The position numbers and the translations under genes were made by a program. The notes beneath the pieces were generated by a model that was given only the letters and a program-made list of their open reading frames with translations, did not search any database and was not told the DNA's origin. From positions 29,744,864-29,808,863 of the forward strand of contig CM073322.1 of NCBI GenBank assembly GCA_037043015.1: a stretch of 64,000 bases of DNA, in the 5' to 3' direction. This stretch comes from Bryum argenteum. Lineage: Eukaryota; Streptophyta; Bryopsida; Bryales; Bryaceae. Of this stretch, positions 15,352 through 55,049 are shown one piece after another; position 1 is the first letter of the stretch, and each line of letters begins with the position of its first letter.

Positions 15352-16130
15352 GATAGAAATCTTGATTTTATTGAGGATGTTGAAAATTATACACTTCATA
15401 ATAATGATATAGTAAGGCTCATTTGTAAACGAACACCAAATATGCCCCTTCTTTTTTTGCATACAATGGCCACTACCCAAATGCAAATAATAAAGTTTTT
15501 TCATAGGCAAGCAAGCAAGCACTTGAGAAAAATATTGCCTTACTCACTAAGCACTATTCTATGCAGTGTATTTGATGGAATAGCCTTTTTAAGGCGGTGA
15601 TTTTTGAATGGAATAGCTGCTGCATACACTTGAAGTTTTTGTATATAATCTCATACCCAACATGTTCTTCTTTCATGTGAGAGGTACATCTTAAACCAAA
15701 TTGATGCATGAGTTTCATATGATGATAGTTTCATGCTAGCATACTTGAAGACCGGCCTCAATGTAAGCCACTTTTTCTCCCCCGGAAATCATGTGGCTAC
15801 GGCACTCGAATTGATTGTGACAAATCTAAATGGTTTTTTTTACTGACTTGACGTGTAGAGGGTTGCATGAGCGGGAGTAGAAGAAGTACGGGGCTACAAC
15901 CTAGGCTATGGGTAAGAAACCATACCAACCATGGGGGAGCGACAAAAGGGCAATGTCTGATCTGCGCACACACAAAGATGAAAGAACAAACCGTGGGGTT
16001 ATTGATCAGTACATCACACTCTTCGCAAGGACTGTGACAAAACCGACAAGGGCAAGGGGGTGGTGCCGGGGGGCCGGCCGGGCGGGGCGGGCACGGAGGG
16101 TTAAGGGAAGGGGAGGGGGGGGGGTGGGCA
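15352..16130. other. Intergenic, turning GC-rich toward the TCP gene
   Basis: It is AT-rich to about 15850, then G-rich with long G runs at 16107-16125. Proline-rich frames on the - strand here follow base composition and are not supported as genes. Confidence 0.4.
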
Positions 16131-17114
16131 TCATAATTGGCACTCAAGCAAGGGAAGATGATTCAAAGGTGGGATAGAGACTCAAGGGGAATCATACTGG
16201 GAATCGAAAAGGGATGGGGTGGGGGGGGGGTACGACGGACGACAGGCCACAATAATAATAATTATAGCTCAACTCCGTCGCGCACGACGAACGACACACG
16301 GGTGGGCATATTGGCAGCCAGCCCCCCTCGGTACTTTTACTTTTTCCCCGGCGGGCAGGCGAATAATGGAGTGCCCGCCCGTCAGAACCCAGCGAAGCAG
16401 TCCAGCAGTCCAGTGAGCGTCGGTCGCGTTTGCAGCGAGCGCTTCCCCTCTGCAGCGCCCGCATCGGCCGCGGCCATCACCCCAACGCCAAAGCCTCCTT
16501 ACGAGGGCTCGTTGATACGAGCTACTAGTCTCTCGCCTTTTCCTTTTCCTCTGGATCTCCTACTACTCCTCTCCGTCTGCCCTCCCCCCACCCCCCCCCT
16601 CCCCCTCCCCTCTCCATCTAGGGTAGCCTTCACTCGCATGAGCAAGGGGATCCTTTCCATGGTCGAATCTCGGGGTTTCCGGATGCCGCGCTCTAGGCGT
16701 TTCTTCTTCGACTTCGACTTCGCACCGCGGCTGCCTCGTGTTGTGGTCGTTGTAGTTCCATGAGGATGATCGGCGGTGCGGGTGCAGGTGGAGCTGGCTA
16801 GGGTGCAGCAGCAGCGGGGACGGCACCATCTAGGTACGAACCAGAGCCAATATTTGTTTTTTAAATTTTTTCTTTTTCTTCTGGACTGTTTTTTTGTAAT
16901 TTTGCCGAGAGAGCGAGCCAAAGAAAGCAGAAGGCGATGGTGGTGGTGTTAGATCTTCTCGAGATGGGGTTAGAATTGGTGGATTCGTCGGGTGGTAGGG
17001 GAGATTTACGAGTGTCGGAGTGGGGATTGACCAACCGCAGCTGCTCACTGGTGGCGCAGTGGTGAGAGAGGAAATTTAGGTGGGGAATTGAATGCCGGGT
17101 CACTGGTCTCAGCG
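16131..17114 (+). promoter_or_regulatory. TCP gene 5' flank and probable 5' UTR
   Basis: GC-rich sequence precedes the TCP start. It has a C-run cluster at about 16569-16613 (G-quadruplex-prone on the opposite strand) and a G10 run near 16220. No clear TATA box was found. An open + frame ending near 16763 lacks family features and is probably compositional. The transcription start cannot be placed from sequence. Confidence 0.45.
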
Positions 17115-18689
17115 ATGGCGTCGATGGGCGGACAGGGAATAGGAGGTGGAGCGGACTCGACGTCGCTCGTCATGGCAGGGATGGGACAGGATTACGGCGG
17201 AGCCGAGGGGCAATCCAGCGGGGGCGTCTCGGGGTTGGGTAGTATGGCGATGGCGGGGAGCTCTGGAGAACAGCAACAACAGCAACAGCAGCAGCAGCAG
17301 CAACAACAGGCACAGCAGCAAGTTGCCGCACCCGCGAAAAAGCAACCTCCGAAGCGAACGTCGACCAAAGACAGGCATACGAAAGTGGATGGGCGCGGGC
17401 GCCGCATTCGCATGCCCGCGTCGTGCGCCGCACGAATCTTCCAGCTCACCCGGGAGCTTGGTCATAAATCCGACGGGGAAACTATTGAGTGGCTGCTGCA
17501 GCAATCTGAGCAGTCGATAATTGCGGCCACGGGCACAGGGACGGTCCCCGCCCTGGCGTCGTCCATTCAGGGATCCTTGCGGAGCTCCACGAGCATGGCA
17601 GTTGCGGCGGCGGGGCGCGCAGGGATGCACGGGAGCCTTGGGTTGGTAGGGCCAGGGGGTGGGCCGACAGAGGCCGAGATGCGGATGCAGCAGGAGCAGG
17701 CGCAACGGGGGCGCAGCGAATGGGGTGCGAGCGCGGAGGAGCGCGTGATGGACGCTTCGCGGGCCATGGAGGCCAGTCGCCGCATGAGCTTGGGCCATGG
17801 GGATCCAGGGATGGGGCACGACGTGATGGCGTTCCAGCACCAGGATTTGGTGGGCGGGCCTTCGGAGGTCGGCGAAGGGATGGATTCGGGGGACAGCAGG
17901 TTGCGGAAGAGACCCAGGGGGTCGCCGCTGCAGGGCCGTATGAAGGAGGATCCGGAGCCCGTGCGGCCGGTACGTGCCAATCCAAGGGGATCTATGCAGC
18001 AGCAGCAACAACAACAGGGGCAAGGAGGGCAGCAGGGTGGCGGCGGATCGTCCAGCATGATGCCCGCGGCAATGTGGGCCGTAGCACCAGCAGTGGCGGG
18101 CGTGAGCAGCAGCGGCCCGATGCCGGGCACCATCTGGATGTTGCCGGTGAGCGCAAGCGGGACGACACCCGGCGTGATGCCGGGCCCGTCGGAGCAGCAG
18201 ATATGGACGTTCCCCACCGCGGCGGGCCAGTACCGTATGACGGCGGCGGCAGGGACGTCGATTCAGCTAGGACCTGGTGGTGGCGGCGGCAGTGGCCAAG
18301 GTAATGCTCCCACCTCCAGTGGCGGCAGCCCCGTCGGCAGCGGGCAGCAGCAGGCCATGGTGCCGCTCACGGCGTCCGTGCTGCCCAGCGGCGGGGTGGC
18401 GCTCATGCCGCGCATCAACATTCAGGGAGGTATGGGGCTAGAGCTTCAGGGCAGTCATATGGGTCATCACATGCCGCTCGGGTCTATGTTGTTGCAGCAA
18501 GGGGGGCAACAGATGCCCGCCACGGGGTTAGGCCTGGGCGGCGGTGGTGGTGGAGGAGGGGAGGGGCATTTAGGCATGCTGGCCGCTTTGAATGCTTATA
18601 GCCGCAACTTGAACCCTGACCATCAGTCTATGGGTGGCTCAGGGCACCAACAGGGCGACAGCGGCGACGATCCCACCAGCTCACAATAG
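17115..18689 (+). CDS. Class I (PCF-type) TCP transcription factor, intronless
   Basis: This encodes a plant-specific TCP DNA-binding factor of 524 residues, expected to act in the nucleus on GGNCCCAC-type sites controlling growth. I chose the ATG at 17115, since the frame extends upstream only to a TTG at 17088. The order is a G/S/M-rich N terminus, a poly-Q tract (about residues 53-68), and then the TCP domain (about 77-140). The basic part is [20 protein letters not shown]; it is followed by helix I ([13 protein letters not shown]), a loop, and helix II ([12 protein letters not shown]). The short basic region and the [13 protein letters not shown] spacing mark class I. The rest is low-complexity Q, G and M-rich sequence, with a second Q tract near 295-315. 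There is no R domain. It is long for a class I member because of the low-complexity C terminus. Antisense and other-frame open frames of 200-300 codons here reflect the GC bias. Confidence 0.95.
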
Positions 18690-20255
18690 TAGTGTCCTCG
18701 CATGCTAGCCTCTTGACGACCACCAGCACCCAAGTTTTGAAGCTGACGACGACGACGACGACAACGCTGCTGCGCACGCGAGGCAAGCTGAACTGCGAAC
18801 GAGGACTCTACATCACAACAACAGCAGCAGCAGCTCTGGCAGTTGCTCTCGTCTAGATTGAGACATTGTATCAAATAGGCCGATCGTGCCATACAGGGGT
18901 ATCCAACAAGAAAACCACCACAACTTCTTCATCATCATCAACATAGAACAAGACGACGCAGACGGCAGAGAGCAGGTGTGGCAATGCACGGTGCTGCTGC
19001 TGCTGCTGCTGCTGTACGAGGAGATGGCCAGTCCCACTACTCGTGGCTGTGCAACACTCCAGGAAACGGGCAAAAAAAAAAAGCAACAAATCAACCAACG
19101 CAACGCAACAATCCAATAAGGTGGCGGAGCTGCAACTCGCCACTGCTCCCAAGGGGTCGGCGGGCGGGATGGTAGACCTCGCTCAGGTGGAGAGTTTTCC
19201 TTATTATCTGAATCATCCTAGTTATTGTATCTCACCCGGAGTTAGTCTCCTCCTCTTCCCCTGCTTTGCTCTATCCTCTGCTCACACCCCAGGACCCGTG
19301 TTTTTATAACCATAATTCATCGGATCCAAAGGTTCCACCAAACAGCTAGAATAGCTATCCAAACACGATCATCACCATATAGTCGCAAAACACCAGGTTG
19401 TTCCTTCGTAGTGTAGGGGTCATTCTTTGTCTCGTCTTCGACACCCGTTGAAGCTTAATAACACTCTTTTCCCGGGGCCCTTGGCCTCCATTCCTCTTGC
19501 CCCGCTGTGTATTGTGTAGACTCCCTCTCTTTTTTTCTTATAAAACAGTGCGCACCCCTTTCGGGATGTCCGCTTGAGTTTGTTCTCTCTACTCCTGCCT
19601 CCTCCGCTCCATTTTTTTGCTTTCTACGGGGAACTGGGAAGAATATTCGAGCTCTCTTATTGTGCCGTCACGCAGATTCTGTGGAATCTGGGGGTATTCA
19701 TTGTTCGCCTGCTTCCAGGACGGACAACTTCAGCACGTTTGACTTGAAAACACGATGGATGTGAGCTACGTGGTGGAGCTTGTCCCTTGTCCTGGTCTTG
19801 CTCACTAGTAGTAGTACCGCTACTTGCTTTTTCCTGGTGTAATGTACAGATTCAAGGACTTGGTAGTAGTAGCAGCACTTAATCCTTTGTAGCCTACTCG
19901 TATGTATGTATTACTGCCCAGATTTCAATGATGATTTTGAGTTGCAGGGGATAATATGAAAATGTTACAGGCGAGAGTAAAATTGTACTGTACAATCGGA
20001 TCTAACCGCACTTAGATTGAGGGATTAGAAGCTCCCTAACCTGAACACACTTGCTCATAGGTCAAAGGGGAGGTGGGTCTAAAGTCTAAAGCCCCAATTA
20101 TTCTGTTAGGCTTCTAAGCTTTGTGATTACTCCCTACCTACCTACCTACTTGTCAGTTTCTACTATTCACCCCCCGATGCCTTTGCAGGAACTGATTTGC
20201 TTGATTACTGTTGCTAGACTGCTAGAAATCGACGCAGTACCAAGAATGGCTCATA
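18690..20255 (+). other. TCP 3' flank, probable 3' UTR, then intergenic
   Basis: GC-rich at first, with CAR- and CTG-type runs such as (GCT)n near 18990, then AT-rich after about 19800. No further gene is seen. The end of the transcript cannot be placed. Confidence 0.4.
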
Positions 20256-30842: not shown

Positions 30843-30964
30843 TCTATATATATAATAAAATATCGTACGGCAATTCTTCCTACCCACTAACGTACCAACC
30901 TACCTACCTACCTTTTTATGTTTTTTGGATTATGTAAAAAAATTTAAAAGAAAAAGAAAAAAAG

Positions 30965-31026
<62 letters not shown>

Positions 31027-31065
31027 AAAAAGAAAAAGAAAAAGAAAAAAAGAAAAAGAAAAAGA

Positions 31066-31096
<31 letters not shown>

Positions 31097-31278
31097 GAAA
31101 AAGAAAAAAGAAAAAAGAAAAAAGAAAAAAGAAAAAAGAAAAAAGAAAAAAGAAAAAAGAAAAAAGAAAAAAGAAAAAAGAAAAAAGAAAAAAGAAAAAA
31201 GAAAAAAGAAAAAAGAAAAAAGAAAAAAGAAAAAAGAAAAAAGAAAAAAGAAAAAGAAAAAAAAAAGAAAAAAAAAAG

Positions 31279-31310
<32 letters not shown>

Positions 31311-31331
31311 AAAAAGAAAAAGAAAAAAAAA

Positions 31332-31363
<32 letters not shown>

Positions 31364-31411
31364 AAGAAAAAAGAAAAAAGAAAAAAGAAAAAAGAAAAAG
31401 AAAAAAAAAAG

Positions 31412-31442
<31 letters not shown>

Positions 31443-31582
31443 AAAAGAAAAGAGAGAAAAGAAAAGAAAACGGGCATTTATAAAAATAATAAACATAATA
31501 TGAGGAAATGGGTAGACATGGGATAATTTTATAAAAGTATCATATAAAGAGCTTTCCCGTAGGAACGACGGTACATTACTAG
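30843..31582 (+). mobile_element. Helitron-like element carrying a GAAAAA expansion
   Basis: The 5' end is A|TCTATATATATAATAAAA. Near the 3' end a short hairpin (CCGT...ACGG, 31558-31571) precedes TTACTAG|T. The ends fit Helitrons (5' TC, 3' hairpin plus CTRR, A/T target, no duplication). It shares both flanking parts with 45.5-45.86 kb: a CCTACC-rich left part, and a CGGGCAT, TATAAAAATAATA, CATATAAAG right part. The middle is a purine tract (30940-31460). Confidence 0.5.
30940..31470. repeat. Poly-A and (GAAAAA)n purine tract, about 530 bp
   Basis: Almost pure A and G, with a long A run and then dozens of GAAAAA-type units. The lysine-rich and phenylalanine-rich frames across it are repeat artefacts, not genes. 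Confidence 0.97.
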
Positions 31583-34364: not shown

Positions 34365-37328
34365 CTAAGAGTAGGAGTTTCTCACTGCCGTATCCCAAAG
34401 GATAAGACGGGGAGGCGTTTCAGGTCTAAGAAGCCACCGCAAAAGTGCCTCCCCATTTGCAGTCCACCTTCCTGTATCACTAGATAATCGAAAAGGCACC
34501 CCAAGTTTATGCATTTCTTTTTCGATGCTCGCTTTCACCTGTGACCTCCCCTCTTCCTTGCTTAATTTCCCCCACCCACTCACCACCGTTACAAATTTAG
34601 GAAAGGCCTCCATGTGCTCATGAGGCAAAAACGAGACTTTCACTTCAACGTTCATGACCGAATGCTGTTCATGCTCTTCAAGATCACTGTCGAGCATTTC
34701 AAGAGCATCCACCTCTTGAGCCACTTCGAGCAGGTGAGCTAGCCACTGGTACAATGCGACTGTGGCACCTCCAGATGAAAGACGGCGCACATCCAGCTTC
34801 CATTCAATCGGAACCACAGTGCAAAGCTCCTCGTAAATGCCACTGTTGTCATAAACCCATCCTAAAACGATTGCAGCTCGTCGATACCAACCTAATGCCC
34901 AAAGTGCGTCCAAGAGAGCGGAGCTCAATGCAGTCCACGTTTTGGTGTGCTCTTGTGGGATGGAATCGAAACATCTGCTCAAAAGATTGATCACCTGCAA
35001 GCATAGCATAGCATCGATCTATCAGGATCGATCAAAGAGATAAGACTGCTTCAATGCAACAGGCTCTGTGATCGATGTTGTTACCTCTTGATCAGTCTTT
35101 GCGCTATCAGTTAACAGAGAATGAGAACATTGTACGAGCTCTGAACCAAAACCTTCCAGTGATTGAAGGAGATTCGAAGCTTCGACGTGGTTGGAGCATT
35201 TCGAACTTAGTGCGACAAGTAGCACGGTACACGTGACAGCATTTGGAGAAATTGCCGCTGCTCTCATATCGTCCAACACTCTGATCATTCCTGCAATGTC
35301 CTTGGCTTTTGCGCAAGTGTCTAAAGCCTCAGTGTAGGTCTGTACACTACAAACAGTGTTTAACTGCTTTGCTTGATCGTAAATGGATAACGCCTGCAAA
35401 AGAACGGATCATCCACTTCTTACTACTTTCTCACATATAGTCTTCAACTGAGAAACAGATAGATATATAGTCCTATGCATTTGTTTGATTCAAGAGGAGA
35501 TTGCATTGATGTACTCACGTCTTTGAAAGCTCCAGTTGCCTTGAAACTGGACATGAGGACTGTAAAGGAAACGCCGGAGGGCTGTAGTCCAGCTTGCACC
35601 ATCTCAAGGAATACACTCTGTGCACGACCTTGCTCGCCTCGTTCATTATACACACTAATCAAAGCATTGTACGTCGTGACACTGGGTTTCACGCCATACT
35701 CTTTCATTGCTTCGAATATCGTTTGTGCCTCCTCCACATGCCCACCTCTCCTACATGCATTTATTAGTGATGTGAAAGTCTTCACATTCGGTTCGCACTT
35801 GTCTGCCGTCATTTCACCAAATACTTGCATGGCAGATCGAAAATCCCCTGCACCGTTTTCACAGGATCATATCAGTAATTGGCTCAACATAAAGGGTATG
35901 CCCAGATTAGAACAAGGCTCAACGCACTTAGAATAACGCTAAAATCTCAGCGACGGTCAACATCCAAGCTTCTTAAACCCTACAGACCAAGGATTCATGT
36001 CCATAGAACTACCAACTCGATACACCATTTTGACAAGACGATAGGGAGTCGAATCTGGTATTCATCGACATTGCTCACGAAAAGAAGTAAACGTATCCTT
36101 CCAAATCAAGTTTGCTGATTGAATCATGAACCCTAATCTCTGCTATCACGACCTAAGAAGGATCGGTCTATGATTCAATGTAGTTTGGGTCATCTAACGA
36201 AGGTACACTCAAAGTGTTGTAACTACCGTTAACCCTAAATGTTAGCGATGGTCGACCTCCGGACATACCCCTAGCATTGGGTTTTAGGTAAACTGTAGAC
36301 CTCGTAGCTTCCAAGATATTAAGAATCCAAAAAACGCGTTCTTTGATCATTGAAACCCTAAAAGAACGATCATACAGCATGAAAATGAAGTTCCACAATC
36401 AAGAGATGTGAAACCCTGATATGAGAGGTTTAGGTCAAGAACACTAACCAGCTTTGGCATGAACGGTGATGAGTGACGAATACGTTACAACAGTGGGTTT
36501 AACACCGCGCTTCTTCATAGCTCCAAAAATTCGCTGCGCTTCCTTGACGTGCTCTCCGGAAGCACAAGCAGCTAAAAGAGTATCATACGATACAACATCT
36601 GGTTGAATGCCTAGTAAGCACATCTCCTTGAAAACCGACAGCACTTTCGACAGGCCAGTATCGGCCTTGACGTACATGTTCATGATGGTGTTGTAAGTGT
36701 ATAAATCCGGCCTGCAATTCCGCTCCTTCATGGCATTGAACAATTCAAGGGCGCCATCCACATGGCCGGCTTGACTGCGAGCGTGCAGGAGGGAGTTGTA
36801 GAGCACCGTATCCTTGTGGACAGAGTCATTGATACCGGTGAAGATCTCCTCCGCCAAATCCAAGCAGCCGGAGCTTCCCAGAGTACCAATCACAGTCGTG
36901 TACAAATGCGGGTCTAATTTACACCATCCTTGCAGCTGCATCCATTGGAACACTTGAAGCGCAGCGTGAGGACGACCCTTTCGACCTAATTCTTGCAGCA
37001 CTGCGTTCACCGTCCTCGCCACTTGCTCGTAGCGAACATAACGAGCTCCGGATCCCAGTTTTCTCACCCAAGAGCCGAGCACGTCTTTGATGGAGAGCTC
37101 GTCGCTGAGATCCAGCACCTGGCGGACCAGATTGGCCTTGTCGTCGTCCCGGGAACTCTCGCGAGTGAGCCAGTAAGGGCGGTGGTCTGAATCCAGGCAG
37201 GTGCTGAAATGCGCGAATCGGCGCAGACAGAACCAGGCGGGATGGTGGCGGGCGAGACGCCACGGCCCCATGAGAGAACGCGAGGCTACGTGAGCATGGT
37301 GCCTAAACCCTAACACCAGGGAATTCAT
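34365..37328 (-). CDS. PPR-SMR protein, organelle-targeted, four exons
   Basis: Exons on the - strand are 37328-36449, 35847-35519, 35393-35085 and 34994-34365. All introns are GT-AG and the frame is kept, giving 715 residues. The N terminus is arginine-rich and acid-poor, like a plastid or mitochondrial transit peptide. About ten P-class 35-residue PPR motifs span about residues 160-490 (such as YNTIMNMY and YNALISVY), which bind single-stranded RNA. A C-terminal SMR domain (about 573-700) has the SGWGKLSKEEG box and ends in ALLRWLL. The usual LDLH of SMR reads LDVR here. PPR-SMR proteins act in organelle gene expression, RNA cleavage or retrograde signalling (GUN1, pTAC2, SOT1 and SVR7 belong to this class). 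I cannot assign a specific orthologue. Confidence 0.93.
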
Positions 37329-38630
37329 AGAACCTCATTGCCAGTGTTTGATGGAGCAGTGTGGGTTGGCGTGGCGTCCGCCACAAACACCCCTGAGAGT
37401 GACACACCGCTGATTGTTGTAGGAAAAAGCGTCTTCTGTATCTTAGCTGACGTGATGAGGTCACAGCGGCGAATTCCCCTTCGTTGGCGACGAAGCCAGC
37501 GAGCTCGATGGAAGCTTCCTTCTGTCTCCAATCGGTTACTGCTCCGTAAATGTGTCATTGTTGCCTCCATCTTCGTTTCGCACTTTCGCTCCGTTCAATT
37601 TCGTCTCTGTTCTTTCCGTTTCTTTTTCTTTTCGTCTATTGCTGCTTCCGTTCGCTCCGTTTCTTTTTCTTCCCGTTTCTTTTTCTTTCCGTTCCTTTTT
37701 ACTTCTCTCTCTTCGTTTTCTTTTCACTTCTCTCTCTGGGTTCCGTGTTTCTCCATCTCATTCTCTTCCCTTCCTCACATCTTTTCTACTATTTTCTTCG
37801 TCATGCTTCCAATGTTCTTCTTCTCAGCACTTCCTATCTTTGAACTCTCCTTTGTCGCGAAGCGCAGGTTGCAGAAACCTAAAAATAGACTTTTGTTCGG
37901 AGGACATGGTGGCTTGCATGCGAGTTCGTATTCATGATTCCCCCTTCGGAACATTGATGTGTTTGCAGTTATTACTCGAGTCGAGGTGCATGGTGCTGCT
38001 GGACCTGCGGACAAGGCTGCTCTTCCTAAAGTTTAGATCTGAGTACATCGGTAAGTTGAAATCCTTAAGCTTGCTAGCATTACTGAGTTGGAGAAAGACA
38101 TTCTGATTGTATTCCTAGGCATGACGTGCACCTAAAATTGTGTACAACTCTTTTCTTCTCCTAAATTCAAATCATATTTTTCACTCTTATGAAATGGACA
38201 AAACATTGCTGGTGAGGGCGACGAGCATGCACAACCCTCAATTAGTACGTACTAACGTGACATTAACATCTGTTGAAAGCCCTGGATCTATAACAGCTCA
38301 TACTTTCCTCTGAATGTCGTCACCGTCAGATTTACCAAGACTTGTTAGGTTCGATGCTCATCTTGTGATCGGTGTCTAACCTCAGCCCAGCTTGTTGTCT
38401 TCATGTTTACCAATCATGTACCAGAATCTCGCATTCATGGTACGTACATGATTAGTTCCTAGCTGGTTACCTTGACACCATCTTTGCAAGATAGTGCTTA
38501 AATCATCATGAAGGTGCCTCATTGTAGTTGCATGAAAATGTCGTCTTCTATAGTTGTTGGTATTCATGATCATACCTTCATGAAACCTCCCAAATGTATC
38601 ATATGACCCGATTGTTGTTTGCGTTTGCAG
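37329..38630. promoter_or_regulatory. PPR-SMR 5' flank with a pyrimidine-rich tract
   Basis: This lies just upstream of the PPR-SMR start, on its opposite side. At 37550-37800 the + strand is C/T-rich with repeated CCGTTTCTTTTTCTT words. Long frames crossing it are repeat-driven. No TATA box was identified. Confidence 0.45.
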
Positions 38631-42189: not shown

Positions 42190-42785
42190 CGAATCCATGG
42201 AAAGAAATGCGCCGGAGAGAAGGAGAGGAGAGAAGGAGAGTATGCGCGCTAGAGAGAAGGAGAGGATGCACGCCGTAGAGAAGGAGAGTAAGCCACGCCG
42301 GAGAGAAGGGGAGTATGCGACGGTGGAGAGAATGAGAGTACGCCGGAGAGAAGGAGAGTTCACGCCGGAGAGAAGGAGAGTATGCGCGCCCAACCATGTG
42401 GTACGTGTGGTAGTCATGGAAAAGAAATGGAAAGCACGTTGGAGAGAAGAAGAGTATGCGCGCCGCAAAGAAGGAGAGTACGCGCAGGCGAGAGAAGGAG
42501 TGTATGCGCGACTCATAGAAGGAGAGTACGCGCCGTCAAGAGAAGGAGTGTACGCGCCGCCGAGAGAAGTAGTGTACGCGCGACGCATAGAAGGAGAGTA
42601 CGCGCGCCAGCCATGTGGTACGTGTGGCAGTCAGGGAAAAGAAATGGAAAGCGCGCTGGAGAGAAGAAGAGTACGCACGCCGTAGAGAAGGAGAGTACGC
42701 ACGCCGTAGAGAAGGAGAGTACGCGCCCCCGGAGAGAAGAAATGTACGCGCCGGTGAGAAGGAGAGTAAGCGCGACGGCCGTGTG
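42190..42785. repeat. Degenerate GAGAGAAGGAGAGTACGCGC minisatellite
   Basis: About 25 units of 20-26 bp are built from GAGAAGGAGAGTA and CGCGCC words. A larger module (CCATGTGGTACGTGTGG plus flank) recurs at about 42396 and 42612. Frames on both strands read as simple peptide repeats, which is typical of a minisatellite. Confidence 0.85.
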
Positions 42786-47481: not shown

Positions 47482-50400
47482 ATGGTCCACATAACTGAAA
47501 TGCGCATTGTCCTTCCACTGACAGGTATATCATTGTTGTAGCAAGGTTGTCTTTTTCTAACTACACTGGGGTCTCAAATTTCTCCTCATGTAAATGTTAC
47601 TTTTTGAGTAGGTCGAAAGGAAACTTCGCACGTACTCTGGGATCAACATAAGTACTACCCTTGATTGATTCTGTTGCTTTTGGCGCCGACTGAATTGTAA
47701 TTTTTACTACGCGGTCAAGTGAATTGATCCAGAAGTCGTTTAGGGTTTAAGTGCAGAGAGGCTCTGCCAGTTTGGGGTTTCGGTTTTTGCAGAAAGTAAC
47801 TTCGACTGCTTCGTGGTACAAGAGTCCGCTGTTCTAAGTCGCACTGTGTTGTCTGAAATTAGTGGAAGAATTCAAGAGGGGTCAACGTTTCGCCAACTTC
47901 AAGACCAATGAACAGAATACGTCAGAGGGTCAAGGAGGGCAGGTGTGTCTCGTCTATTTCATATCCATCAGATTGCTGCTCATGTTCTGATAAAATTTGA
48001 GCTCATAAGCGTAGAATATGTTTCCAGCTTCTCTCGACATTGCCGTGGGAGCACGAGACTTGGGGCGAAGGATTTTACACGCACAGCCTTTATCGTCTTG
48101 GAGACCGCTTGCCGGACTGGGTAATGCCGCAATTATGAAGCCTATTGTGACATGATATGAGTTTTACATAATTCCGTTGATGTGACAGTATGGTGGCGCG
48201 CTCTAATGATTTGGTGGCTGTGTGTCATTTTGCTGCATGTGAAATGTTACTATCGACCACTAATGTATGGAAAAAACCTTGCGGTTGCAGGTGACAAGGT
48301 TGGTGCCTTCAAATGCTTTAATCATTGATGAAAAGACATGGATGGCTTATCCGTACTTACGAACCACGATATCGATTCCATTTTTCAATAAGGTAAGTTC
48401 GATACCGAGATTATTTCTGCGTTGCAGTAAAGTTGATTGAAATGATCTTAAAATATTTCGAATATTAATTGTAAGTTTGCATCAGCTGAAAATAGAAATG
48501 CTCAGCATGCACGCGGATGATGATGGCTCAACGGAGAACATTCATAATCTTACCGAAGCTGAACTTGCAATCCGCAAAGTTGATATGATCGATATCGCAT
48601 TTGACGATGTAAGTCACCTCTCTTATCCTTTAAAGCCAAGGTTATTAGGAGGTGTGATTCTTATGAATCCTTTATTGAACTCAGCGCTAAAATTGGTAAC
48701 CACTTCACAGAGCCTTTTAATGTATGATACAGACGTTTCCTTGCATGCTAGTTATGAAAAACTTGACGCTTTGTCAGTGCTCCTATTTTTTAATACGAAC
48801 TAGAGTTTCAATGTAGGCATACAAGCAGAAGTCTCATATTTCGTGGCCAACATTCTCTTATCCAGTCTACTGTAATTTTTTCATCTTCATAGTTGTAGGT
48901 TTGAAAGTGTGCTGGTTTTGGAGGGGCATATGAAACAACGTAATTATCCCCGGTAATAGAAGGCTACAGACGAAGGAGGTACTTGTGATATGTATAAGAA
49001 CTCTCACAAACATATCTCACGCAGGTCCCAAAACGAGACTATCGATCAGAATTGGATCCAAAGCTGTATATCTCGAAGAAAACTGGGTAAGGAAATTCAT
49101 GATACTCTTGGCAACTCAACATGATTACACTCCGTTGAGGACATCCTATCTCTTCAGGACATTGGGACGACTGAGTTATTTTATGGTCAGATTTCTTAAT
49201 CAAGCTGACTGTTGGGTTGAAACAGGCGAGGACCTTTGAAGAAGGGCTGGCGCGGTAAGACTGAACCGACGATGTGTGCATACAAATTGGTCAAAGTTGA
49301 AGCCAAGTAGGTAACAGCTTCTGTCCACCCCTTGGTTTACAAGGATGTGGTCAGCGGCAAATCCCTCTTTATTAACTTTTGTAGACTTGTCAATTATGCA
49401 TCTACATACAGAAATGCGGTTTCTGTCTATAGAATCTATTACTTCAACATTTGAGATGCGTTTTACCCAGCTCTATTAGGAGCCGTGATCGTATATTAGG
49501 GCCGATTTATGCTATAAATCTGTTCACTTCCACTACACAGTTTTTTCTAGACATATTTTCAGATTTTTGGGACCAGGCACCTTCTCCATAAACTCTTACT
49601 ACTAACCATTGTGAAAGTATTGATGTTATGAATCTGCCGTATTTGATTGACTGGAAACGTACGCACTCTGCAGTTATTGGGGTGTCCAGAACCGGGCCGA
49701 GAAACTGATGATGAATGGAATCCGTCAGGTACACTACGATCACTTCAACACTATTGCAGAAGAAGTTCTGACGTGCTTGGATAAGCCTTGTGGCCTTAGG
49801 CACTGCAGGAATCTTGCTGTTGCAACTATCCTGTTTCATATACTAATGCGCGCTTGCTCGTTGACTATCCAGATAGTGCTTCTCACCCATCGGAATGCAT
49901 TCTGTTGGCTGGATGAGTGGTTCGTTCTCACCTTTGAGGAGGTACTCTTTCATACCTTTTGAGCAAGCACATAGAGTATGAAATTTCAGGGGAATTGATA
50001 TTTCCATATGCTGTCGTAAGTGGACGCCTTCTTCTAGGCTTTACGTGCTTTTCTGGTATTTTTTCATAGTTGCTTGTTGTAGTGATCACAGCCAGCCTTT
50101 TGTGCAGATCTGTGCACGGGAAGTCCTGGGACGGCAGAAATTGAAGGCTACTGTGAAGCAACCACCTGTTATTGATCCTAGGACAGGGCAGGAAGTCATC
50201 ATCGAGCCCGAAGGGCGAATATCCCAAGACACTGATGACAGCCGAGATAACAGCCGAGATAGCAGCGACGATGATTCCACGGGCGATTCTAGTGACATTG
50301 AAGCTGAATACTTTGAGGCCGAGGTGAGGCTTAGACTCACTAGTGCAGGGTGCGTTTTGTATGGTCTGATGTAATATTCAAGTTTCCATGGTTTTTTGAG

Positions 50401-53400
50401 TCCATAAGCTGAATCTTTAGGACTGATCAGGGTCCAACTGCAGCTCTTTCGTGAGCTTAGTATCAAGTGGTAATATTGCAAATTTTCATCCTTGATGCGC
50501 TCTTGAGTTTGTTAGATTTGCAGTACGCACTTTTTTTTGGAACGCCATGACCTGTTTTGCATGCGCTGAAAGCTTATACTTTCGATGTTATGGCTAATGC
50601 AGATGGAGTTGGGCAACCAAAACGTAGAGCAGTTCGGAGCCAGGCATTTAGCAGGTGCGCAACATTCTACTAGTGCAAATACATCATGGAATGCTTGTTT
50701 AGGGCAGATTTATACGGTGAGTGAAGGCCAAAATGAGAGCGTCGGCCATTGGAATCAAGCTTCCTCATTGGTATCCAACCGCAATTGAATAAGGATCAAT
50801 CTTGAATAATGTTTTCCATCTTACATCATTTGAGTAATTTACTTGTTTGAATAAGCCCTTACGGGACCCCAAAATGGAGAGCCAAGTTCACCATCTTGGG
50901 GCTATGTCAGGCCGTCAATGGCACCTCCATCAATGGGGATGAGGGACCCTTAGGGGCCAAGAATGGGCTCTGACGGCCTTCCAAATCCCATGGCCCTCAT
51001 CATATGTGCCAACTCAGCCTTAACTTCGTGGGAGTCATAACTTAGTGAATACTGGTTGTGAATGAAATACAGTATTTCGAAATTTGATGTCGGGCCATCT
51101 TAGCTCCTATATGCTACTCAAGGACTCTGTACCTCCCAGGAGTTCATCATTGCAAATTGTAAGGATAGTTATGTGCATGCTGTTTATATTTAAGTTCAGT
51201 ACTGACATTTATGTTTTGCTGAAGCAGGGACCGATGCAGTGATTACTCAGCCTTTAGATGTTCCTGACAGGTACAGTGCAGCTGATTTTCACAGCTCTTA
51301 TACTGTAGAATTATACGGAGGCAAGGTTGATGGCGTCCAATGTATCTTCTCCTAGCATGCACTGTTGAGTTCTCCTAGCAAGCAGAATGAATGCCTCTGT
51401 TAAGTGGACTGCCATTGCTTCTGCTTACACATGTTGGTCAGTTTGGAAATCTTTGAGTAAAGGAATCAAACTGCATATTGAGAAACCCTATCTGCATATT
51501 GACTCTGGAATGGTATGGGTAGATGTGCAGTATGTGCTACACGAGACATCTCAACCTCTCCGCCAGCTCTATTCTGCACAACTTGCGAGGAATACTTCTG
51601 CCAGCGTTGTTTTTCTGAGGTAAAAATTCTGCAGATATCTTATGGGCGTGAGGGCTCGAAATTAATTTCTTTCATTCCTCATATGCAAGACGGTCGCTGG
51701 TCATCTGTCAAGGTCTTTATTACGAACAGGACAGTCTCAGTCTGAACCAGCACTTGGACAAGCTAATGGAATTTGTGTCGTCGGAAGCTTGTTTCATTCT
51801 GTTATCGCCATGTCTTTAATTCTCTGGAGTGAACCTACCATCTCATGAACCCTAGCTGAGTTGAATGTTGCCAACTGTAGTGCCCAATGTTAGACAATTT
51901 CTCTCGTAAACCCTGTCAGGTTTCCTGAAATGCGTTGGACGACTTGGTTTCCTGAAATGCGTTGGACGACTTGGTTTCCTGAAATGCGTTGGACGACTTG
52001 GTTTCCTGAAATGCGTTGGACGACTTGGTTAAATTGCTTTTGTATATGTGTGCAGTTATTTGGGTTGTGGCTTTGGATAGGATCTTAAAGTTTTTCAGGT
52101 GTTGGATGAATAAGGAAAATCGCTGTCAAGGAGAAGAGAAGTGATCTATGCAAATACTCAGCATATGTGATGGTTTTTGGTATTTTGCAGTTCCATGTCA
52201 CCACGCGACTCAAGGCACATACAACACAACGCCTTTTGAACAGCTTCACATCGTTGGACTCCAGAGATATTGCACGAGCGCGTCCAAAGAAAGATGCTGG
52301 TCTTCCTCCTCTTTCTCAGAAGTCAATCAGCGACATTGCTCAAGTCAATCCTATCCTCGTCAACGGGCATGACTCAAATAATAGACAGGTTGGGTGCAGT
52401 AATTATTGTTGCTCATCTCAGTCTCCGCCTGAAGACCTTATTGTTGTACTGATATCATTGAAATTTTATTTTGAACATGAAGGATGAGAGGGTGCCGAAC
52501 ACTGGGACCCCAGCCAAAGAGTTGGGCACGCAGGAGCACACGTGGATTGGTCGGACAACATCGAAGTTGCGGTCCACTAAAAGTGGCTTTGGTGTGCTCA
52601 ACGGCCTACAGTCCACCGATGACTTGTTACCTCAGGTCGGTGATGAATGTCTCGAGCACTGTGCTTATCTAAAATGATGATAATTGCTCTCTAACATTAT
52701 CAAGTTCATCAAATTCTCTTTAACATTATGTTCCATCTCCGTTGAAATTCTGAACTGAACGAGCAAGCCGCACCTCTTTTACTGATGCCTATCACAAGCT
52801 TTTGTAACTATAACCGTCTAAATAAGTGAGACTTTTGCTCTCACTTGAAATTACTGACGGAAACGCTGTTACTCAGGATGTCTCACACTCTGGGGTCATC
52901 GCTCCAGACCCGGACATTAGTAGTTTTAGTCACCGCCCAAATGAACTGTCTGAAGAGCTCGTGCGAACTGTAGCCTTACTTCATCAACGAGCAGCGGAGT
53001 CACATTCAGCTACTGGATTGTTCCGGACGAGTTCTGGAATCAGCTCTTCAAAACGAAGACTTGGTCGGCGTTCCTCTCATGTAAGTTGTGCCATTTACAC
53101 TAATATTGAATTTGTCAAGTTCTTGTCTACAATGGGAAAAGCTTCTTAAAGCCGAATCTCATGTACCGTAGGAGGTGTTTTGCGGGTCAACTGATTCTAA
53201 GACGCACTTTTATCGTTCAAATAGTGGTATCTATTGTCTTCTTTTTACTGGTAAACCTTCCTTGAAGCTCTCCTACGTTTTTGAAAGTGGCCACTTGGGG
53301 CAGTAAGGGTCGAGTACATCTTCTTGATCGGAGAATGTTCGTGGAAAGAGGTTTGACTGGAGCTGTTTTGAAAACGATGATACAGGAACTTTCGGTGACA

Positions 53401-55049
53401 GATACAGTGGCGGAGCAGTCAATAATGGATCCATACAATGTGAAGGAAATTTACCCTTCTTGGGATATCGGAGTTTACGTTGACAGCTTGGAAGTGAACG
53501 TGCTTCCTATAGAATCTGCCATCAAAGCCTGCACTGCTCTTTACCGGCGATTGCAGTAAGGCTTTTCACAATTTGTGTCAAATCTTTAAGTCGGAAACCA
53601 CTTCTTATTCACTAATATGTGGGCGAACTCTGACTAATCCGTCTTCATTGGGTGAATCAGAGGCCTTCTTGAACTCCTGAAGCATGTGGAGCCAAAAGAT
53701 ATGAACCACAAACAACGGTTGCCATTCTGGATCAACATCTACAACACAATCATGCTTCATGTAAGTTCATGTTACAGTTTGCAGTTCTAGTACATTTTCC
53801 TTCGTTTAGATACCACAGACTTGATACTGAGGTTGCTGTATCTTGAAAAATCGTATGCGTGTGTATCCGTTATGCGGAAGTTGCATTCCAATAGAAGTCG
53901 TATCATCCATGTTTTGATTGTTAAACTTTTGTTGAGTCCGCCATTCTTTTCCGCTAGGTAGAATTTTTTGTAACTGGATTACTGTGTATGCGTTCTACAG
54001 GCGACTCTGATGTATGGAGTGCCCAAGAATCATTACAAGAGGGTCAATCTGATGAATAAGGTGAGTTTTACCTCTTGTCATTTGGCATCGTTGTCTCAAT
54101 ACTTAAGGTATTTTTCCGTGCGTGATCCCTGAAACTCATTTTCGGCAGGTAACGTATATTGTGGGTGGACATCAATATAGTCCGTTGATGATTGAGCACG
54201 CAATCTTGCGATCCAACTCTTACCGACCTGCATTGGTAATGTCTACCATCCTCTCTTTAACGAGCTTGCTTCTCGTTTTTTGTGGTTAAATATGCGGAAA
54301 ACTAACGTATGTACCCCTTGAAAGTAATACCTTAATTTTGAAACTCGTCCCATATTTATGAATGTGATGCTTATGTGCTGTATATCAGGCTACCATATGC
54401 AGCCAATATCCTCTCTCATATGTTCAACATAAAGACATGAATCTGACTTCTCATTGCTATTGTGACGGTGGTACGTTCTGCCAGGCAAGCCTATTGCCCA
54501 TTCCGAAATTGAAGAAGACTGATGAGGTTGCTGGATCATCCCTTGATAACCCGGAGCCGCTTGTCAGTTTCGCCCTTTGTTGTGGAAGCAGGTCAAGTCC
54601 AGTGGTAAGTCCATCGCAACCATTATGATCATTAAAAAAAGAACATGGTCAATCTATCAAAGTTTCGGCCCTATTAGTGACTCCTGAAAACTGACCATTT
54701 CGTGTAACATCTTCAGTTGCGAGTATACACAGCCATGAACGTGGAAACTGAATTAGAACAAGCGTGTCGAGACTATCTGATGGCAGCAGTGGGTGTGAAC
54801 AAGAAGAAATCCATCATGATACCAAAGATCCTGCACTGGTATGCACGCGACTTCTCCCACGATGCTGAGTCCTTAATCCACTGGATTGCTGCCAAGCTGC
54901 CAGCAGACAAGCAAGCCGCGTTTGATGAATGCACCAAGCAGGGACGTCAGAAGTCGTCGTCGTCGGCCAAAACCACCATCCGACACCGTATGTCCGTTCA
55001 GCCCTACGACTGGAGCTTCCGTTATCTCTACGATCCAATGCTCTCCTGA
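47482..55049 (+). CDS. PITP-B-box-DUF547 fusion protein, 22 exons
   Basis: Exons: 47482-47524, 47863-47942, 48028-48120, 48291-48392, 48486-48608, 49025-49086, 49226-49306, 49674-49728, 49873-49941, 50108-50323, 50603-50654, 51228-51270, 51523-51619, 52191-52388, 52483-52635, 52877-53080, 53308-53555, 53661-53760, 54001-54060, 54149-54235, 54485-54604 and 54717-55049. They join in one frame (872 residues). All junctions are GT-AG; the exon 17 acceptor is the weak AAG. Residues 1-250 form a START-like PITP domain: MVHITEMRIVLPLTVEEF start, TWMAYPYLRT, KTGRGPLKKGW, MCAYKLV, YWGVQNRAEK, FCWLDEWF. Residues 250-339 are an acidic linker. Residues 341-382 form a B-box-like zinc finger (C341, C344, C358, C361, C366, C369, H374, H382). 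LSEELVR is at 513-519 and DUF547 at about 625-830 (FWINIYN, GGHQYSPLMIEH, VSFALCCGS). PITPs move phosphatidylinositol and phosphatidylcholine between membranes; the DUF547 function is unknown. The joint role is inference. Confidence 0.88.
51921..52028. repeat. 27-bp tandem repeat, four units, inside intron 13
   Basis: Units start at 51921, 51948, 51975 and 52002 and are identical (core CCTGAAATGCGTTGGACGAC). It lies between the two exons that together encode the zinc finger. Confidence 0.95.

What the first reader, a model, noticed from the sequence alone, without database searches (positions are those of the whole stretch)
47482..55049. A single reading frame joins a PITP lipid-transfer domain, a B-box-like zinc finger and a DUF547 domain
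Seen: 22 exons with phase-compatible junctions give one 872-residue frame with three recognisable parts and no internal stop. Known: START-like PITPs are usually single-domain or fused to other lipid-signalling modules, and plant DUF547 proteins usually have an N-terminal MIP1-type leucine zipper. I do not recall a described PITP-DUF547 protein. Inference: a lipid-transfer domain replaces the leucine zipper, which could tether the unstudied DUF547 to membranes or lipid state.
Basis: partly seen in the sequence, partly recalled or inferred. Interest (0 to 1): 0.88.

Follow-up and report, generated by a model that had tools for sequence, protein, structure and literature searches.

The report
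Bryophyte lipid-carrier, B-box, DUF547 fusion protein
A moss gene joins a lipid-carrying domain of an animal-like type, a zinc-binding B-box and a plant domain of unknown job in one protein that mosses and liverworts share, and its lipid pocket has lost two residues known to be needed to hold phosphatidylinositol.

Summary
Pfam finds IP_trans (2.2e-78), an ANCHR-like B-box (2.8e-6) and DUF547 (5.9e-38). It is not a gene-model accident: 13 of 13 proteins that passed the whole-protein search carry PITP and DUF547 (best-sharing candidates only), from mosses, liverworts and one protein whose gene code I recall as the alga Spirogloea.

Three things are added. (1) The DUF547 half sits with MIP1 leucine-zipper DUF547s (no outgroup), so replacement of the zipper is the simplest history. 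(2) Of four inositol-gripping residues, K61 and N90 are replaced in every family row covering them (14 of 14; 15 of 15), while 30 of 30 other PITPs in hand keep all four: the domain probably does not carry phosphatidylinositol. (3) The acidic linker holds a conserved FFAT-like motif, as behind the PITP domain of RdgB, with one element off-list.

Best reading: an ER-contact-site lipid carrier or sensor coupled to DUF547. Architecture near certain; mechanism inferred. Databases annotate it automatically; my paper searches found no description.

The parts
47482..55049 (+). whole coding span, 22 exons, 846 aa: 47482-47524, 47863-47942, 48028-48120, 48291-48392, 48486-48608, 49025-49086, 49226-49306, 49674-49728, 49873-49941, 50108-50323, 50603-50654, 51228-51270, 51523-51619, 52191-52388, 52483-52635, 52877-53080, 53386-53555, 53661-53760, 54001-54060, 54149-54235, 54485-54604, 54717-55049
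47488..50113 (+). PITP (IP_trans, PF02121) domain, residues 3-238, exons 1-10
   Evidence: E 2.2e-78; PITP alpha chain 1t27_A, E 5.3e-50; coordinates
50306..50605 (+). FFAT-like motif EYFEAEM, residues 303-309, after an acidic tract (end of exon 10 and first codon of exon 11)
   Evidence: 12 of 12 full-length or near full-length rows; 0 to 45 of 20,000 shuffled linkers per row; element 7 is M, outside the substitutions listed in PMC3261905 (passages)
51524..52229 (+). B-box-type zinc-binding domain, residues 341-385 (exons 13-14); ligand set C341 C344 C358 C361 C366 C369 H374 H382
52937..55046 (+). DUF547 module in the wide sense, from the PNELSEELVR helix (residue 510) to the end; Pfam core residues 626-757 = 53695-54779
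   Evidence: PF04784, E 5.9e-38; MIP1-type DUF547s are the nearest outside relatives; P0009 model: ten-residue means of 83-97 at 371-470 and 501-620, 44-59 at 471-500
51919..52030 (.). 27-base tandem repeat, 4.1 copies, inside intron 13; not coding

Best explanation
The gene encodes a conserved bryophyte/streptophyte multidomain lipid protein. Shown: PITP domain, acidic linker with an FFAT-like motif, B-box and MIP1-type DUF547 in one protein, kept from mosses to liverworts. Inferred: the FFAT-like motif binds VAP (VAP27 in plants) and holds the protein at ER contact sites; the PITP domain, which keeps the phosphate-gripping residues but has lost two of the four inositol-gripping ones and the two phosphatidylcholine residues, carries or senses a phospholipid other than phosphatidylinositol (phosphatidic acid is my first guess); the B-box serves self-association or partner binding; DUF547 is the output module, brought to a membrane by the lipid domain instead of being dimerised by a leucine zipper.
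For: Domains and frame. Conservation of the whole architecture: 13 of 13 proteins, mean column identity 61% over 10 rows. Transcript-like ORFs: P0009 and P0015. Inositol residues T59/K61/E86/N90 read T-S-E-M in 12 family hits, T-T-E-M and T-N-E-I in one each, gap-gap-E-V in P0013; 30 of 30 other PITPs read TKEN; phosphate residues Q22, T97, T114, K195 are kept or S-for-T swapped in every family row that covers them. Literature: each of the four is needed for PI binding (PMC8266687, passage); K61A and N90F in RdgB lose PI binding and transfer, with PA transfer largely unaffected (PMC4582195, passages); phosphate residues named in a figure legend of PMC2635478. FFAT-like motif: with the tolerated substitutions of PMC3261905 (passages). 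Seven of ten animal rows checked carry E[FY]FD motifs after their PITP domain. DUF547 kinship.
Against: No binding, localisation or mutant data exist here. FFAT element 7 is M in 12 of 13 rows and A in P0013, outside the listed natural substitutions, and an acid one place later is the invariant one; AlphaFold puts a low-confidence helix there, so the conserved stretch could be a helix with another job. Three of ten animal rows checked, among them the RdgB-type nematode P0041, lack the pattern I used. K61/N90 loss argues against PI, but T59, E86 and E248 are kept, so weak PI binding is not excluded. The ligand is a guess: in PMC4582195 all the mutants also bound less PA, and K61A bound more PC, so PC is possible although C95 and F225 are lost. 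DUF547 gave no solved relative by sequence and no trustworthy fold match, so its output is unknown.
Confidence: 0.42

Rival explanations
1. The PITP domain is a lipid-dead or closed relic that now works as a protein-interaction or dimer module, taking the place of the leucine zipper in organisation only; the protein does what MIP1-type DUF547 proteins do.
For: Two of four inositol residues are replaced in every covering row, and both phosphatidylcholine residues in all covering rows but P0016, which keeps C95; the nearest DUF547 relatives have a zipper at the same end.
Against: The pocket is otherwise strongly kept: phosphate residues and a W in the membrane-docking pair (YW, as in most RdgB rows), and PF02121 scores far above cut-off in the moss and liverwort members scanned.
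Confidence: 0.25
2. It is a working phosphatidylinositol carrier of the RdgB/Nir2 kind that feeds phosphoinositide synthesis at ER-plasma membrane contacts.
For: PITP domain, FFAT-like motif and order as in the RdgB rows that have the motif; YW docking pair and loss of C95/F225 as in most RdgB rows.
Against: K61 absent in 14 of 14 and N90 in 15 of 15 covering hits; K61A and N90F abolish PI transfer in RdgB (PMC4582195, passages). No DDHD domain was reported by Pfam.
Confidence: 0.15
3. Two neighbouring genes or two transcripts, a PITP-B-box protein and a DUF547 protein, that were joined by the gene model.
For: P0014 (Sphagnum-like) ends after the PITP part, with what look like intron sequences kept; Calypogeia P0016 is PITP-only.
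Against: 13 of 13 proteins found with the whole protein have both ends; P0009 is one ORF across the counterparts of exons 8-22 and P0015 across exons 14-22; Calypogeia also has the full fusion (P0010).
Confidence: 0.02

Closest known systems
RdgB/Nir2 (class IIA StART-like PITPs)
   Same: N-terminal PITP domain, then (in 7 of the 10 animal rows checked) an FFAT-type motif, then other modules; YW docking pair; C95 and F225 not kept.
   Different: Pfam shows no DDHD domain but B-box and DUF547; K61 and N90 lost.
PITP alpha/beta (class I)
   Same: Same domain over nearly its whole length (1t27_A residues 1-263, E 5.3e-50).
   Different: Multidomain; K61, N90, C95, F225 replaced.
Plant MIP1 leucine-zipper DUF547 proteins (PF14389 + PF04784)
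   Same: Same DUF547 type with the upstream PN.LSEE helix; nearest outside relatives.
   Different: They have a zipper; 0 of 107 listed carry PF02121 and 0 of 107 have the FFAT-like motif.
Klebsormidium nitens PITP (P0017)
   Same: Streptophyte algal protein with a PITP domain.
   Different: No B-box or DUF547; all four inositol residues kept.
Entamoeba histolytica PTEN drawn with DUF547 (PMC9122207, figure legend only)
   Same: DUF547 joined to a phosphoinositide-related module.
   Different: Lipid phosphatase, not a lipid carrier; unrelated lineage.

Membership tests
StART-like PITP domain (PF02121) | Full-length IP_trans domain above the curated cut-off | tested here: met
   263.7 bits against 21.3, profile 2-238 of 246
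StART-like PITP domain (PF02121) | Four inositol-contact residues T59, K61, E86, N90, described as predictive of PI binding (PMC8266687, passage) | tested here: not met
   window reads T, S, E, M
StART-like PITP domain (PF02121) | PI binding and transfer | not testable with these tools
   needs purified protein
Class I PITP | C95 and F225 (phosphatidylcholine) | tested here: not met
   window L and T
Class IIA PITP (RdgB/Nir2) | DDHD (and, as recalled, LNS2) domains behind the PITP domain | tested here: not met
   Pfam reports IP_trans, zinc-finger types and DUF547 but no DDHD (PF02862, present in the RdgB rows) at E up to 1; LNS2 was judged by the absence of any other family only
Class IIA PITP (RdgB/Nir2) | FFAT motif behind the PITP domain | tested here: inconclusive
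   conserved EYFEAEM in an acidic tract; element 7 off-list
B-box zinc finger | eight-ligand Cys/His set and B-box fold | tested here: met
   eight residues invariant in 14 rows; PF22586 just above cut-off, zf-B_box below; matched by solved B-boxes in the P0009 model
DUF547 | PF04784 above cut-off | tested here: met
   130.1 bits against 27
MIP1 leucine-zipper DUF547 proteins | N-terminal MIP1 zipper (PF14389) | tested here: not met
   no PF14389 at E up to 1
MIP1 leucine-zipper DUF547 proteins | DUF547 half groups with MIP1-type DUF547s | tested here: met
   12 fusion rows plus 6 others joined at 100/100 (26 of the 107 listed non-fusion proteins used; no outgroup)

The most novel reading that the evidence does not exclude
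A third kind of StART-like PITP: a PI-blind, VAP-anchored phospholipid carrier or sensor that arose in streptophyte algae by swapping the zipper of a MIP1-type DUF547 protein for a PITP-FFAT-B-box head, kept in bryophytes and lost from vascular plants, and whose DUF547 end acts on or at a membrane, giving a first handle on what DUF547 does.
Probability: 0.27. Interest if true: 0.82.

Novelty: new variant of a known kind. Interest (0 to 1): 0.62.

Why it matters
From what I recall, PI transfer in plants is told mainly through Sec14-type proteins (the review PMC10225987, passages seen, is of that kind). A conserved StART-like PITP with an RdgB-like layout in bryophytes, with its inositol grip changed in every member seen, would add a different lipid carrier to the streptophyte kit, and would tie the uncharacterised DUF547 to lipids. 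It can be tested in two model plants that have the gene (Physcomitrium, Marchantia).

Tried and rejected
First model with exons 53172-53226 and 53288-53555 rejected: no relative has that insert. Searches were made with that model; Pfam was repeated on the refined one with the same result.

A catalytic-cysteine idea for DUF547 (FALCCG) was dropped: P0013 reads FALCSG and Mesotaenium P0091 FALVNG.

A hidden PITP in the DUF547 protein P0091 was looked for and not found. My random-splice test (0 of 2,000 open) says little and is not used as evidence.

Papers: DUF547 with 'phosphatidylinositol transfer protein', 0 papers; DUF547 alone, 21, none in title or abstract. Titles and abstract starts listed (8 of 8; 3 of 3; 12 of 40; 15 of 34; 15 of 550) name no such protein. 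Supplements were not searched; subscription papers are not held.

Not tested: hornworts (none seen by name in the listings); stand-alone PITPs of about 270 aa in plants, because the length window of the protein search leaves them out; introns of the relatives, whose genomes are not held here.
Full report
What is there. The + strand of 47482-55049 encodes one protein of 846 residues in 22 exons; all 21 introns are GT-AG and 20 of 21 break the frame if kept. Pfam places IP_trans at residues 3-238, an ANCHR-like B-box at 341-384 and DUF547 at 626-757.

It is one gene. A search with the first, 897-residue model found 13 proteins, all 13 with PF02121 and PF04784 in the precomputed annotation, 10 of 13 also with PF22586 (only the 7,989 candidates sharing most words were scored). 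The other three (P0007, P0008, P0013) show the B-box below its cut-off, and all 14 aligned rows keep the eight Cys/His residues. Sources: Ceratodon purpureus (two proteins, P0001 and P0002), Physcomitrium patens (P0003 and P0004 look like one gene, P0009 is an exact stretch of P0003, P0005 a second gene), Sphagnum magellanicum and compactum, Marchantia polymorpha, Calypogeia fissa, Riccia fluitans and sorocarpa, and P0013, whose gene code SM000037S13494 I recall as Spirogloea muscicola (recalled; not looked up). Not all entries are whole: P0013 lacks the first 81 residues of the alignment, P0005 ends early in DUF547, and P0007 lacks a short DUF547 piece. P0015 (JGI, 451 aa) is 95.6% identical over residues 394-846 and has the spliced junctions of exons 14-22; each of the eight introns in that span would break the frame. 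P0009 (contig of 3,017 bases) is one 628-residue ORF across the counterparts of exons 8-22. I take both as transcript contigs; that rests on their genes having the same introns, which I could not check.

Where the DUF547 comes from. With residues 508-849 of P0001 as query, 142 proteins passed and 120 are listed (22 weaker ones unseen): the 13 fusions first, then 107 others, of which 105 carry the MIP1 zipper PF14389 and none carries PF02121 (counted from the list). Fern, lycophyte, gymnosperm and angiosperm proteins are among the 107, so vascular plants are searched in part, yet no fusion appears among them, nor among the 46 hits of the profile search (7,995 candidates scored). That is absence in capped lists, not proof of loss. 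In a tree of 38 rows (12 fusions, 26 of the 107 others) the fusions are one group at 82/70, with P0091 (gene code recalled as Mesotaenium) at 92/84, and this set joins a zipper-bearing subgroup of five rows, among them Riccia, Ceratodon and Ceratopteris, at 100/100. There is no outgroup; if the root lies among the remaining MIP1 rows, the PITP head replaced the zipper. P0013 and P0091 are long branches, so their places are unsure.

The lipid pocket. Four residues grip the inositol ring, T59, K61, E86 and N90, and mutation of any loses PI but not PC binding in class I proteins (PMC8266687, passage). [quoted passage not shown] PA transfer was largely unaffected although PA binding fell, and K61A bound more PC (PMC4582195, passages). 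In this family K61 is S (12), T (1) or N (1) in 14 of 14 covering domain hits and N90 is M (13), I (1) or V (1) in 15 of 15; 30 of 30 other PITPs have all four. The rows are redundant: P0003 and P0004 look like one gene, and 26 of the 30 share one RdgB-like pattern. The PITP-only Calypogeia P0016 shares the change (N, I). The phosphate-contact residues Q22, T97, T114, K195 (PMC2635478, figure legend) are kept or T-to-S in each family row that covers them. C95 and F225, needed for PC (PMC8266687), are lost, except C95 in P0016. The docking pair WW is YW, as in most RdgB rows. Hence: probably a phospholipid pocket, probably not for PI; PA is a guess and PC is not excluded. The PITP tree puts 14 family rows apart from Klebsormidium, PITP alpha, a mite PITP and four RdgB-type rows at 100/100 (21 rows, P0046 left out because my cut had removed its domain).

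The linker. After the PITP domain each fusion row checked has E[FY]FE[AT] behind an acidic tract: EYFEAEM in the window and most mosses, EFFEATM in liverworts, EFFEAEA in P0013 (13 of 15 rows checked; not in the PITP-only P0016 nor in Klebsormidium P0017). In 12 of 12 rows the real linker has it while 0 to 45 of 20,000 shuffles do. None of 107 non-fusion DUF547 proteins has it, and 7 of 10 animal rows checked have an E[FY]FD motif (six EFFD, one EYFD) at residues 325-404; P0018, P0041 and P0046 do not. FFAT motifs bind VAP on the ER, and F2Y and D4E are among natural substitutions; weak targeting survives two changed elements (PMC3261905, abstract and passages). Element 7, here M or A, is outside the list. 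Plants have VAP27 proteins at ER-plasma membrane contacts, and Nir2 works with VAP-B there (PMC7387695, passages). I rate a working FFAT at about one in two.

B-box and DUF547. In the model of the Physcomitrium relative P0009 the B-box is matched by solved B-boxes of CONSTANS, COL2 and TRIM28. DUF547 has no solved relative by sequence (best E 0.51, a tropomyosin) and no usable fold match. Its pairing with lipid modules has a parallel in an Entamoeba PTEN drawn with DUF547 (PMC9122207, figure legend).

Most likely working. Shown: architecture, conservation, residue changes, motif. Inferred: VAP anchoring, a non-PI phospholipid as ligand, B-box for association, DUF547 as output. I put 0.42 on the whole chain and near certainty on the architecture.

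Novelty. I found no paper on a PITP-DUF547 protein (open-licence papers only, capped lists for 48 and 73). The database entries carry the domains by automatic annotation, so the combination is visible but, as far as these searches go, undescribed: a new variant of a known kind.

Noticed in passing
window 51919-52030: Perfect 27-base tandem repeat, 4.1 copies, in intron 13 of the gene.
   Followed up: no
window 17031-18689, + strand: 552-residue open frame with a TCP transcription-factor domain (PF03634, E 4.1e-30), in a GC-rich stretch (61% and 55% in the two 2-kb windows at 16001-20000 against 31-49% elsewhere).
   Followed up: partly
window 36444-37334, - strand: Open frame with pentatricopeptide repeats (PF13041, E 3e-45), perhaps a piece of a longer gene.
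   Followed up: no
window 30946-31470: About 525-base A-rich tract (TRF period 1, 77% matches) that yields spurious long lysine-rich open frames.
   Followed up: no
window 42227-42778: Degenerate tandem array, period 24, about 23 copies, in part also read as a 217-base unit.
   Followed up: no
P0016, Calypogeia fissa: A PITP-only protein of the same PITP clade, beside the full fusion P0010 in the same species: a split, truncated or secondarily reduced copy.
   Followed up: partly
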